The notes beneath the pieces were generated by a model. The model ran no database searches. It was given only the letters and a program-made list of their open reading frames with translations, and had not been told where the DNA came from. From Clostridia bacterium (lineage in GTDB: Bacteria; Bacillota; Clostridia; Oscillospirales; CAG-382), in contig JAFRPL010000015.1 of the NCBI GenBank assembly GCA_017429165.1, forward strand, positions 1 to 64,000: 64,000 nucleotides of DNA, read 5' to 3'. Shown piece by piece: positions 11,901 to 15,266 of this stretch (positions within the stretch are counted from its first letter, which is position 1; every line of letters begins with the position of its first letter). Both the position numbers and the translations under genes were made by a program.

Positions 11901-13055
11901 ATGAAACGCATCCTGGCATTCCTGCTTGTTTCCGCGCTCGTTTTCACGCTTGCAGCGTGCGGCAAGAGCGGGACCGATAACAGCGGCGACGATTCGCCGC
12001 TCACCCGCAGCGACAGCCCCAGCCAGTCGCAGACGCCCGGCGGCGACGAAAGCGAAGAAGGCGGCGCTTCGGGCATAATCACCGGACCTGCAGTGTCGCT
12101 CGAATCGGTGTTCGCTTATATCGAGACCGGCGATACTTCGGCGTTCGACCCCACAAAGCTTTCCGAAGCCGATAAGCAGGCGCTCAAACAGTCGGTCGAA
12201 AATGCCGGCGGAAAGATCGTATACGGCGCCGACGGAAGCATCGATATCACCGGCAGCGACAGCACCCGTATAATCATCCATCCTGACGGCACCTACGAAG
12301 GCACTGATTCCGACGGCAACCCGTTCAGCTACCAGGATATGCACAACTGGCCCGACAGTGAGCTCGGCAGAGCCGTTCCCGAACCGGATTGCGGCATTAC
12401 GCTGGTGAACGAAGAAGACGGCGTGCTCGAAGCGCTTGTCAGCGCCGACACCGCCGATCAGGCGAAACAGTACGTTGCAAAACTCAAAGCCGCGGGCTTT
12501 ACCAACGACATCGAAGAGACCGATATGCTGGATTACGGTATGTATTCGTTCAGCGCGGTCAACGCCGACAGAATAAAAGTCGATGTGACGTATGTCGATA
12601 TGGCGGGCACCAAGGGCTGCACGGTATCGGCGTACGCCCCCGGCGCATGGGAATATGACGACGATGATCCGTACGACGACGACTATTCCTACGAAGACTA
12701 TTCTTATGATGATGATTCCTATCCCGATCCGGACGAGCTTTATTCCTCCGAATGGCCCGATTCCGGCGCGTTCGAATATGCGCCCGAACCCGCGTTCGGC
12801 AGCGGATATACCGTAAGCGATATGGGCGATTCCTACGCGATCCTGGTCAACGGCGGCACGCGCGCGGATATCGAGACCTATATCCAGGCGCTCAAGGCAA
12901 AAGGATTTACCGTCGATTCCGAATATGAAGAAGACGACGATAACGTGGTTTACGTGGGCTATAACAGCGCCGGCTACGGCATGCTCGCCGAATTCACATA
13001 TGAAATGGCGATGATCGTCGGCACCAAAGCGCCCATCGATCCCGACGACAGATAA
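11901..13055 (+). CDS. Lipoprotein with two repeated alpha/beta domains and an acidic Tyr/Asp linker
   Basis: A 384-residue lipoprotein (signal MKRILAFLLVSALVFTLAAC, lipobox LAAC). After a Ser/Gly/Asp-rich spacer there are two copies of an approximately 90-residue alpha/beta unit with the helix motif QYVAKLKAAGFT and, later, TYIQALKAKGFT. Each unit contains an acidic strand segment and ends with a hydrophobic strand (YVDMAGTKGCTVSAY and ELTYEMAMIV-like). A low-complexity linker of mostly Asp, Tyr, Ser and Pro (about residues 252-280) separates them and could bind calcium or act as a flexible arm. The unit recalls small clostridial lipoprotein domains of unknown function. Confidence 0.75.
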   Translation: MKRILAFLLVSALVFTLAACGKSGTDNSGDDSPLTRSDSPSQSQTPGGDESEEGGASGIITGPAVSLESVFAYIETGDTSAFDPTKLSEADKQALKQSVENAGGKIVYGADGSIDITGSDSTRIIIHPDGTYEGTDSDGNPFSYQDMHNWPDSELGRAVPEPDCGITLVNEEDGVLEALVSADTADQAKQYVAKLKAAGFTNDIEETDMLDYGMYSFSAVNADRIKVDVTYVDMAGTKGCTVSAYAPGAWEYDDDDPYDDDYSYEDYSYDDDSYPDPDELYSSEWPDSGAFEYAPEPAFGSGYTVSDMGDSYAILVNGGTRADIETYIQALKAKGFTVDSEYEEDDDNVVYVGYNSAGYGMLAEFTYEMAMIVGTKAPIDPDDR

Positions 13056-13074: not shown

Positions 13075-13821
13075 ATGAGTTTTTTTGACAAGCTTATCAA
13101 AAGTTTTACCAACAAAGTAGTAGACGACGCGACCGATAAAGCGGCAAAAGCCGCGGCTGCCGAAGCCGAAAAGAAGCTGAAGGAAGAAATGGCCGAAGCG
13201 GCCAAATCCGCCAAGGAAGCCGAAGCGGCGATGGACGAAGCCGGCAAAGCCGCGTCCGATATCCCCGAAGACGACTGGAAAAAGGCGATGGACGCGCTCA
13301 AAAAGCTTTCCGAATTATCCAACGCCGGAGCGAGCACCAAAAAGTGCCCCGCCTGCGGCGACACCGTGAAAGCAAGCTGCAAGTTCTGCCCGTCCTGCGG
13401 CGCTCCCATGCCCGCAGAACCCGAAAGCAAACCCGAAAGACCCGTTGAAAAGCCCGCCGCGGCTCCCGTTTACGACGAAGACGACAGCGTCGATCCGATG
13501 TTCCGCGAAGACGGCAGGGACGTTTCGGAAAAGCTCAGAGAAGTGCTCGCTTCGGAATTCCCGGCTTATACGTTCAGGGAAAACGTGTCCCCCGCCGAGA
13601 TAGGCGGCACCGGCAAGTTTATGAACTATTCGTTCGCGGTCTACAAAGACAATGCTCCCAAGCTCTTTATGATGATAATCGGCAAAACCACCTGCACTCA
13701 CCGCGAATACCGCTGGTCCAAGGAACAGGCACAGAAAGCCGGCGTCACGATGATCAACTTTATACGTCACGAACCCAACAGCGTGATCTATATAAAGGAC
13801 CGCCTGCACAAGTATCTGTAA
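13075..13821 (+). CDS. Zinc-ribbon protein with Ala/Glu-rich helical N-terminus and unknown C-terminal domain
   Basis: A 248-residue cytoplasmic protein with three parts. Residues 1-75 form a long charged helix or coiled coil (AAKAAAAEAEKKLKEEM and similar). Residues 85-105 form a zinc ribbon with CPAC, a middle Cys pair and CPSCG. Residues 140-248 form an alpha/beta domain with KFMNYSFAVYKDNAPKLFMMI, whose strand pattern recalls PD-(D/E)XK nuclease folds but lacks a clear acidic-x-Lys site. It is the gene immediately upstream of the reverse transcriptase leader and in the same direction. A functional link is possible but unproven. Confidence 0.7.
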   Translation: MSFFDKLIKSFTNKVVDDATDKAAKAAAAEAEKKLKEEMAEAAKSAKEAEAAMDEAGKAASDIPEDDWKKAMDALKKLSELSNAGASTKKCPACGDTVKASCKFCPSCGAPMPAEPESKPERPVEKPAAAPVYDEDDSVDPMFREDGRDVSEKLREVLASEFPAYTFRENVSPAEIGGTGKFMNYSFAVYKDNAPKLFMMIIGKTTCTHREYRWSKEQAQKAGVTMINFIRHEPNSVIYIKDRLHKYL

Positions 13822-13869
13822 CAGGCGAATAGGATCTGCAGACAAAGAAGAAAGAGAAACGCATATTAT

Positions 13870-13961
13870 GTGCGCCTGCGAAAGGTCAAGCATTGCCCGC
13901 AAAACACGGCTTTGCAGGCAGCCGGACAGTGTACGGCCCCGTATCATAAGCAACTGCTTAT
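13870..13961 (+). ncRNA. Candidate structured RNA upstream of the reverse transcriptase
   Basis: The 200 bases between the zinc-ribbon gene and the reverse transcriptase contain several self-complementary segments. GCCTGC plus AAAG (13874-13884) pairs with CTTT plus GCAGGC (13910-13919) with one bulged G. CGGCT/AGCCG (13907-13924) is an alternative to it. TACG/CGTA (13932-13943) forms a short hairpin. ATAAGC/GCTTAT (13946-13961) forms a 6-bp stem with a 4-base loop and no terminator T-run. A pyrimidine-rich tract and a GGAGG site then lead to the start codon. Stand-alone RTs often have such a partner RNA. This is inference from pairing by eye. Confidence 0.4.
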
Positions 13962-14022
13962 TTCAAAGCATTTTCTCTTTCTTCTTTTGTCATATCCTTT
14001 TTATCCCGTTTGGAGGCTTGCG

Positions 14023-15252
14023 ATGTCCGTCATCACACTTTTATCCGATCCGCAGACGTGGGCGGAATTCCGCGAATACAAGTCGTTCCACAGCCATATT
14101 TCCAACCGCGAGCTCAAAAAGCTGGATGAATTCATTTCGCAGCAGCGTTATCTCGCCGTGACAAGCCGCATCACTTCCCGAAGCTGCGGCTTTTTTCCGC
14201 CGCGCCGGCGCGTCATCAACAAGAGCGGCACGCGCAAAAAGCGGGTCATATATATGTATTCGCCCGACGAAACTTACGTACTCAAACTGCTTTCCTGGCT
14301 GCTTTACCGCTACGACGGCAGGATACATCCTTCGTGCTATTCGTTCCGCCGCAAGGTCACGGCAAAGGACGCCGTGGCGGATATCATAAACGCCGTAAAA
14401 GGCCGCCGCCTCTACGCGCTCAAAGCCGATATCCACGATTATTTCAATTCCATGCCCGCGCATCTTTTAGTGCGCGAGCTTGAGAGTATCATAGACGACG
14501 ATCCCGAGCTGCTCGCGTTCCTTTCAGACCTGTTGCTCGCCGACGTTGCGCTCGACGAAAACGGGAACGAAATAAAAGGCAACCGCGGCGCAATGGCAGG
14601 CGTGCCGGTCTCGGCGTTTTTCGCCAACGTGTACCTGCGCTCGCTCGACGAACTGTTCGGACGTTCGGACGCCGCGTATTACCGCTATTCCGACGATATA
14701 CTCATATTCGCCGAAACGCCCGGAGACATCGAGCGCTATAAAGGGATACTCGAAGAGCACATAGCGCTGAAAGGGCTGGAGATGAACCCCGAAAAGTACG
14801 CGCTTTCTTCCCCCGGCGAGCCGTGGGAATTTTTGGGGTTCCGCTTTGAAAACGGCAGGATAGACCTTTCGCGCGCGGCGGTGAACAAAATGAAAGGCAA
14901 AATGAGCCGCAAATGTCGTGCCCTTTACCGCTGGAAAATAAAAAAAGGCGTGGATTTCGACCGCGCCGCCAAAGTGGTGATCCGAATATTCAATCAAAAG
15001 TTCTACGATACCGACGAGCTTGATGATTTCACCTGGAGCCGCTGGTTCTTCCCGGTGCTCACCACCGACAAAGGGCTCCGCGAGCTGGATTCGTATCTGC
15101 TCGAAAACCTGCGCTATATCCGCAGCGGAAGGCATTACAAGGGCAATTACGCAGTCACGTATGAAAAACTTAAGCAGCTCGGGTTCCGCAGCCTGGTGCA
15201 CGAATACTACAAATTCAAAAAAAGCAAAGAAAAAGATACGGCGTCCGGTTGA
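14023..15252 (+). CDS. Stand-alone reverse transcriptase (RNA-directed DNA polymerase)
   Basis: A 409-residue polymerase with the full set of RT motifs: KKRVIYMYSPDE and SCYSFRRKVTAKDAV (RT1-2), YALKADIHDYFNSM (RT3, first catalytic Asp), GAMAGVPVSAFFANVYL (RT4), YYRYSDDILIFA (RT5, catalytic Asp pair) and FLGFRF (RT7). A helical thumb-like region of about 120 residues follows. There is no HNH endonuclease domain, no retron VTG motif, no DGR-type GxxxSQ motif and no protease. The ATG is chosen for GGAGG six bases upstream, although the frame is open further left. It is one of the unclassified bacterial RT groups, some of which are anti-phage, or a group-II-like relic. Confidence 0.9.
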   Translation: MSVITLLSDPQTWAEFREYKSFHSHISNRELKKLDEFISQQRYLAVTSRITSRSCGFFPPRRRVINKSGTRKKRVIYMYSPDETYVLKLLSWLLYRYDGRIHPSCYSFRRKVTAKDAVADIINAVKGRRLYALKADIHDYFNSMPAHLLVRELESIIDDDPELLAFLSDLLLADVALDENGNEIKGNRGAMAGVPVSAFFANVYLRSLDELFGRSDAAYYRYSDDILIFAETPGDIERYKGILEEHIALKGLEMNPEKYALSSPGEPWEFLGFRFENGRIDLSRAAVNKMKGKMSRKCRALYRWKIKKGVDFDRAAKVVIRIFNQKFYDTDELDDFTWSRWFFPVLTTDKGLRELDSYLLENLRYIRSGRHYKGNYAVTYEKLKQLGFRSLVHEYYKFKKSKEKDTASG

Positions 15253-15266
15253 ACGGACGCCTTTTT
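15240..15266 (+). terminator. Intrinsic terminator overlapping the RT stop codon
   Basis: GGCGTCCG (15240-15247) pairs with CGGACGCC (15254-15261) around a 6-base loop that holds most of the stop codon, followed by TTTTT. Confidence 0.9.

What the first reader, a model, noticed from the sequence alone, without database searches (positions are those of the whole stretch)
13822..15266. Stand-alone reverse transcriptase with a structured upstream region and its own terminator
A 409-residue RT with intact catalytic motifs is preceded by about 200 bases containing several hairpins and no coding gene, and ends in an overlapping terminator. The layout (structured region, RT, terminator) resembles RT systems in which a noncoding RNA is the template or primer, for example retrons and DRT2. 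The sequence does not fit retrons, DGRs or intact group II introns. Known fact: several unclassified RT groups are anti-phage. Inference: this could be a new RNA-templated system.
Basis: partly seen in the sequence, partly recalled or inferred. Interest (0 to 1): 0.75.

Follow-up and report, generated by a model that had tools for sequence, protein, structure and literature searches.

The report
UG26 reverse transcriptase with RT-5 RNA
This is a bacterial reverse transcriptase of a known but unstudied group (UG26) paired with a known but unexplained structured RNA (RT-5), usually next to a small nuclease-fold gene; the RNA looks like a separate working partner of the enzyme, probably its template or scaffold in an anti-phage system, but nobody has tested it.

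Summary
In detail: an intact 409-aa RT (14023-15252), a strongly structured upstream RNA and a terminator overlapping the stop. Neither main part is a new class. The RT is UG26 (PADLOC, E 1e-156); the RNA is Rfam RF03026 'RT-5' (81 bits, cut-off 45.7). 'Stand-alone' is wrong for this locus: the gene just upstream (13075-13821) is a diverged RT-associated COG2852 companion. It precedes RT-5 in 23 of 33 inspected loci, and in 391 class genomes it occurs only there (8/8 copies). Across 32 homologues I extend RT-5 beyond the Rfam model with a closing helix, a 5' hairpin and a 7-bp pseudoknot, all covarying. Of ten loci without the companion upstream, nine have a TATAAT box just before the closing helix, and in two genomes the RNA gene is separated from an intact RT by 1.2 and 7.3 kb. 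So RT-5 is a separable, trans-acting RNA rather than a leader of the RT message. Best reading: a Class-2-like defence-RT ribonucleoprotein with RT-5 as scaffold and probably template. A telomerase-like A-B-A' template 3' of hairpin P3 is possible but not established. Retron and group II readings are not supported. New member of a known kind; function untested.

The parts
13075..13821 (+). companion gene: 248 aa; short N-terminal MSFFDKL helix, zinc ribbon (residues ~88-112), C-terminal domain (residues ~147-248) with the alpha-beta-beta-beta-alpha-beta order of PD-(D/E)XK folds; diverged relative of PADLOC RTasCOG2852
   Evidence: the window copy itself is not hit by the PADLOC model; relation rests on hhalign with type-2 copies (E 3e-6, probability 88)
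13841..13991 (+). RT-5 ncRNA, extended boundaries (closing helix P1 to P1')
13841..13859 (+). P1 closing helix, 5' arm (GACAAAGAAGAAAGAGAAA)
   Evidence: native 11.3 of 12 pairs vs 7.7 with arms swapped between homologues; absent from the Rfam model
13972..13991 (+). P1 closing helix, 3' arm (TTTCTCTTTCTTCTTTTGTC, one bulged T)
13861..13873 (+). hairpin SL1 (GCATA-TTA-TGTGC)
   Evidence: z 9.2, 0/2000 permutations; absent from the Rfam model
13874..13880 (+). pseudoknot strand 1 (GCCTGCG)
   Evidence: 32 homologues, mean 6.97 of 7 paired, 0/5000 permutations; not in the Rfam model's nested structure
13913..13919 (+). pseudoknot strand 2 (TGCAGGC), loop of hairpin P2a
13870..13975 (+). Rfam RF03026 RT-5 match
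13931..13942 (+). GT-N8-GT segment (GU, AU in 2; fixed 10-nt spacing in 32/32); its middle pairs with 13884-13887 (helix P2')
   Evidence: spacing; P2' z 4.6, 1/2000 permutations
13946..13961 (+). hairpin P3 (ATAAGC-AACT-GCTTAT)
   Evidence: z 17.8, 0/2000
13960..13974 (+). candidate template segment 3' of P3 with A-B-A' pattern ATTT-CAAAGC-ATTT (hypothesis)
   Evidence: exceeds letter shuffles, but not convincingly the arm-swap control (p 0.02-0.13)
14023..15252 (+). UG26 reverse transcriptase, 409 aa, YSDD active site
15240..15266 (+). intrinsic terminator overlapping the RT stop codon

Best explanation
The locus encodes a UG26 (Class-2-like defence-associated) reverse transcriptase and its dedicated trans-acting RNA, RT-5. 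The ~150-nt RNA, closed by P1 and locked by a pseudoknot, binds the RT as scaffold and supplies a short internal template, most likely the unpaired stretch just 3' of hairpin P3; the RT makes repetitive cDNA from it. In most loci, this one included, an RT-associated COG2852-type protein with a (probably catalytically degenerate) nuclease fold is co-encoded as sensor, effector or regulator. The probable purpose is phage defence. Shown: RT group, RNA family, RNA structure, linkage and separability of RNA from RT. Inferred: binding, templating, repetitive product, defence, companion role.
For: UG26 profile 519 bits vs 129 for the next group. RT-5 found in all 15 UG26 loci L002-L016. Conversely 16 RT-5 hits in 391 genomes: 14 lie directly before a UG26 RT, 2 are separated from an intact one. 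In G293 a GH43 gene on the other strand sits between RNA and RT (1.2 kb); in G182 RT and RNA are 7.3 kb apart, the RT now directly behind an unrelated gene and the RNA between a TATAAT box and a hairpin-plus-T-run (read by eye), still 86-87 bits. TATAAT within 1 mismatch, 5-7 nt (12 in one) before P1 in 9/10 loci without the companion upstream vs 4/23 with it (Fisher p 1.6e-4). Every helix covaries. Companion domain: 8 copies in 391 genomes, all directly upstream of RT-5. Published precedent: DRT9, DRT10 and DRT3a use ncRNA templates (PMC12632851, PMC13174585, PMC12489045), in DRT10 just 3' of a stem-loop. DRT9 and DRT2 RTs are among the top fold matches.
Against: No template could be shown: the direct-repeat test is weak. 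No cDNA, binding or phage data. No PADLOC defence hit among ten neighbour genes. The best fold and sequence matches are group II-type RTs. Ten of 33 loci lack the companion upstream, so it cannot be essential everywhere, or it lies elsewhere.
Confidence: 0.6

Rival explanations
1. RT-5 is a cis-acting leader (attenuator or autoregulatory binding site) that controls expression of the RT, not a substrate or partner in its chemistry.
For: It lies between companion and RT in one direction in most loci; P1 with its U-rich 3' arm could act as a weak terminator.
Against: In G182 and G293 the RNA is separated from an intact RT by 7.3 and 1.2 kb with genes on the opposite strand between, yet is fully conserved, with its own TATAAT box.
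Confidence: 0.12
2. Retron-like: the RT uses RT-5 as combined primer and template for a discrete branched or short cDNA, with the long P1 acting like the a1/a2 repeats, and the companion as effector.
For: ncRNA upstream of the RT, closed by a long inverted repeat, plus an associated protein gene.
Against: Retron profile far below cut-off (St85 45 vs 235 bits); by eye no NAxxH or VTG motif in the RT; no Rfam retron match; no msd-like hairpin of free sequence.
Confidence: 0.12
3. The RNA is only a protein-binding scaffold or allosteric activator and the RT makes untemplated DNA.
For: No convincing template repeat; most conserved residues sit in structure and pseudoknot; Class 1 DRTs make untemplated DNA (PMC13174585).
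Against: The Class 2 UG systems studied so far use an ncRNA template (PMC13174585), and by profile UG26 is nearest UG27, UG4, UG17 and DRT9.
Confidence: 0.13
4. Degenerate group II intron with a domesticated maturase.
For: Best solved relatives are group II RTs.
Against: TIGR04416 101 vs 300 cut-off; UG26 forms its own branch apart from the sampled maturases (SH-aLRT 99); no group II RNA in the window.
Confidence: 0.02

Closest known systems
UG26 reverse transcriptases (PADLOC RT_UG26, 'DRT' set)
   Same: Full-length profile match, E 1e-156; homologues form one branch in the tree.
   Different: Nothing; this is a member. No function published in the papers I could search.
RT-5 RNA, Rfam RF03026
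   Same: 81 bits over the whole 104-position model.
   Different: The real RNA is ~150 nt: the Rfam model lacks P1, SL1 and the pseudoknot. Whether the original description draws the pseudoknot could not be checked (paper not held).
PADLOC RTasCOG2852 (RT-associated COG2852 protein)
   Same: Companion in L054 hits it at E 7e-54, L018 and L047 weakly.
   Different: The window's type is not recognised by the model and adds a zinc ribbon; joined to the others by hhalign, E 3e-6.
DRT10 (UG17) ncRNA-RT-SLATT defence system
   Same: Three-part layout, ncRNA upstream of the RT, unpaired stretch just 3' of a stable hairpin (PMC12632851).
   Different: Different RT group, different companion (nuclease-like fold instead of SLATT protein), A-B-A' template repeat not established.
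DRT9
   Same: RT plus ncRNA; solved structures are among the top fold matches.
   Different: No poly-U template seen; RT ~90 aa shorter; UG26 C-terminus is modelled as a helix, not a priming loop.

Membership tests
UG26 RT group | best and full-length match to the UG26 profile | tested here: met
   519.5 bits, residues 1-400 on profile 1-397 of 398; next best UG27 129 bits
UG26 RT group | one branch with other UG26 RTs, outside group II maturases | tested here: met
   SH-aLRT 99 for 29 UG26 rows; reference set limited to RTs from related genomes plus one Drt3a
RT-5 RNA (RF03026) | covariance-model score above gathering cut-off | tested here: met
   81 vs 45.7 bits
RT-associated COG2852 (RTasCOG2852) | profile match | tested here: not met
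   window protein not hit; other companions hit, L054 7e-54; profile-profile link E 3e-6
RT-associated COG2852 (RTasCOG2852) | PD-(D/E)XK fold order | tested here: inconclusive
   AF2 order fits, pLDDT ~90 or more in most of the domain; Foldseek without significant hit, weak TnsA and VRR-Nuc among top ranks; catalytic motif not conserved
Class 2 DRT (ncRNA-templated) | conserved ncRNA encoded next to the RT | tested here: met
Class 2 DRT (ncRNA-templated) | template in ncRNA giving repetitive cDNA (A-B-A' repeat) | tested here: inconclusive
   mean repeat 3.59 vs 3.42 swapped (p 0.11), vs 2.95 shuffled (0 of 500)
Class 2 DRT (ncRNA-templated) | anti-phage activity | not testable with these tools
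   needs phage challenge
Retron | retron RT profile | tested here: not met
   St85 family 45 vs cut-off 235 bits
Group II intron | maturase profile and intron RNA | tested here: not met
   101 vs 300 bits; no Rfam group II match
DGR | template and variable repeats | not tested
   no dedicated repeat search; RT assigned to UG26 and RNA to RT-5 instead

The most novel reading that the evidence does not exclude
UG26/RT-5 is a further telomerase-like repeat writer: the RT copies a ~8-11 nt A-B template just 3' of P3, re-aligns on A' at the start of P1' and makes tandem-repeat single-stranded DNA (here possibly (GCTTTGAAAT)n), sensed or acted on by a nuclease-fold companion found only with this system.
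Probability: 0.25. Interest if true: 0.72.

Novelty: new member of a known kind. Interest (0 to 1): 0.5.

Why it matters
UG26 and RT-5 have sat in databases as two unexplained entries. Tying them together with a third gene, giving the RNA its full boundaries and structure, and showing in natural genomes that the RNA gene is separable from the RT turns both into one testable module, and offers a Clostridia-type comparison for the ncRNA-templated RTs recently linked to telomerase.

Tried and rejected
A-B-A' template at the P3-P1 junction: attractive by eye (L052 GTTTT-AAA-GTTTT, L055 GGATT-TAAT-GGATT), but barely exceeds the arm-swap control and shows no identity diagonal; kept as hypothesis only. 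The GU-N8-GU segment as template: fixed 10-nt spacing in 32/32, but its middle is the covarying strand of helix P2'. UG26 or RT-5 in phages and viral contigs: single-sequence scan found none; profile scan gave only 20-33% relatives, and none of the 10 scanned carried RT-5; one RT-5-like pattern hit (L103) proved chance. Plasmid and phage records hold only distant RTs. Labelled UG17, UG27 and Drt3a references for a tree: none, none and one found in related genomes, so sister-group order is untested. Companion resemblance to LINE-1 ORF1p (E 0.02) taken as chance. Conserved neighbours other than the companion: lipoprotein, 516-aa protein and phosphoesterase are essentially genus-restricted.

Full report
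OBSERVATION. The window holds an intact 409-aa RT at 14023-15252 (RVT_1 E 4e-19; AF2 pLDDT 92), a structured stretch upstream from 13822, and a terminator hairpin 15240-15261 overlapping the stop. The upstream RNA is real: Rfam RF03026 RT-5, 81 bits over the full model, and the extended RNA folds 5.2 SD better than shuffles.

WHAT THE RT IS. PADLOC assigns it to UG26 with 519 bits; the next group scores 129. It is far below the maturase (101 vs 300) and retron (45 vs 235) cut-offs. In a tree with other RTs from related genomes UG26 is one branch apart from group II maturases (SH-aLRT 99). Its nearest solved folds are GsI-IIC RT, G2L4, DRT9 and DRT2. The labelled references were too few to place UG26 among the other UG groups.

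LINKAGE OF RT AND RNA. All 15 UG26 loci L002-L016 carry RT-5 just upstream (L017 is a remnant). Searched the other way, blind to protein, 391 genomes of the class give 16 RT-5 places; 14 sit directly before a UG26 RT. The other two are informative. In G293 a GH43 glycosidase gene on the opposite strand lies between RNA and intact RT, 1.2 kb apart. In G182 the intact RT lies 7.3 kb away, directly behind an unrelated gene, with no RT-5 beside it. The RNA there keeps 86.6 bits, starts behind a TATAAT box and is followed by what reads by eye as a hairpin with a T run. A cis leader of the RT message would not be kept this way, so RT-5 behaves as a separate RNA gene acting in trans.

RNA STRUCTURE. 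From 32 homologues I find, beyond the Rfam model: (i) closing helix P1, 11.3 of 12 pairs natively vs 7.7 with arms swapped between homologues; (ii) hairpin SL1 directly before the pseudoknot strand, z 9.2; (iii) a 7-bp pseudoknot GCCTGCG/TGCAGGC, mean 6.97 of 7 paired, changes on both sides in most pairs, 0/5000 permutations. P2', P2, P2a and P3, which the model already has in whole or part, also covary (P2' is the weakest, 1/2000 permutations). Permutation ignores relatedness of the sequences, so the z values are guides, not probabilities. In 9 of 10 loci without a companion upstream a TATAAT-like box lies 5-7 nt (12 in one) before P1; in loci with the companion 4 of 23 do (Fisher p 1.6e-4; again not corrected for relatedness). 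This fits RNA starting at P1 when alone, and read-through from the companion otherwise.

THE THIRD GENE. The 248-aa gene at 13075-13821 is not an unrelated neighbour. Relatives of its C-terminal domain lie directly upstream of RT-5 in 23 of 33 inspected loci (three of these, L015, L020 and L059, are assigned on short C-terminal similarity or a weak profile hit). In 391 genomes the profile finds 8 copies in 7 genomes, every one beside RT-5; seven of the eight were in the profile, so the informative part is the absence of copies elsewhere plus one new one (G184). Two sequence types are joined by hhalign at E 3e-6, probability 88. One type matches PADLOC RTasCOG2852 at 7e-54, so RT association of this protein was already known; the window's type escapes that model. 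AF2 gives the order of a PD-(D/E)XK fold but Foldseek finds no significant match, and no catalytic motif is conserved across types.

GENE CONTENT. Within the genus the system is patchy: two copies in this genome (14023 and contig position 69348, 43% identical), one in G003, none in G002, and in G001 a remnant in which a deletion joins a neighbour gene to RT codon ~246. Such turnover fits an accessory defence gene but does not prove it. Ten neighbour genes gave no PADLOC hit.

MECHANISM. Published Class 2 UG systems (DRT2, DRT9, DRT10, DRT3a) copy a template in their ncRNA, in DRT10 through a direct repeat A-B-A' just 3' of a stem-loop (PMC12632851, PMC13174585). In RT-5 the unpaired stretch in that position is 13962-13971, with ATTT-CAAAGC-ATTT spanning it. 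The repeat exceeds letter shuffles (0 of 500) but not convincingly the arm-swap control (p 0.11 for the mean, 0.02 for repeats of five or more), and column identities show no diagonal. I therefore offer it as a hypothesis. Binding, templating, priming and defence are all inferred.

LITERATURE. No paper I could search reports an experiment on UG26 or RT-5; one lists UG26 RTs in cold-seep viruses (PMC10504277). The papers that, to my knowledge, first described RT-5 and the UG groups were not available (for the first), so I cannot say whether they already link RT-5 to UG26 or draw the pseudoknot.

VERDICT. Real, correctly noticed, partly misread as stand-alone and new. A new member of catalogued families, with a sharper RNA model, a companion gene, and natural evidence that the RNA is a separable partner.

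Noticed in passing
L002 (G000:C10:69348-70535, outside the window): Second UG26 RT in the same contig, 43% identical, with its own RT-5 (86 bits) and a companion of the other sequence type; a lipoprotein-like gene related to window 11901-13055 also precedes it (38% over 91 aa, L071).
   Followed up: partly
L016:5989-7680: UG26 RT fused to a C-terminal GNAT acetyltransferase domain, in a locus without the usual companion.
   Followed up: partly
L017:4021-4551: Degraded copy in the same genus: deletion joins a neighbour gene to RT codon ~246; companion, RT-5 and RT front half are gone and the remnant has a frameshift.
   Followed up: yes
L104:3404-4402 and L109:7825-8802: GH43 glycosidase gene on the opposite strand directly next to RT-5, separating it from the RT in two related genomes.
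   Followed up: yes
L004, L019, L054 (RT-5 RNA between P2 and P2a): Insertions of roughly 10-40 nt in the otherwise short bulge of the RNA; meaning unknown.
   Followed up: no
companion C-terminal domain (alignment A4, columns 4-66): Weak similarity to LINE-1 ORF1p structures (E 0.017-0.058, four sequences); probably chance.
   Followed up: no
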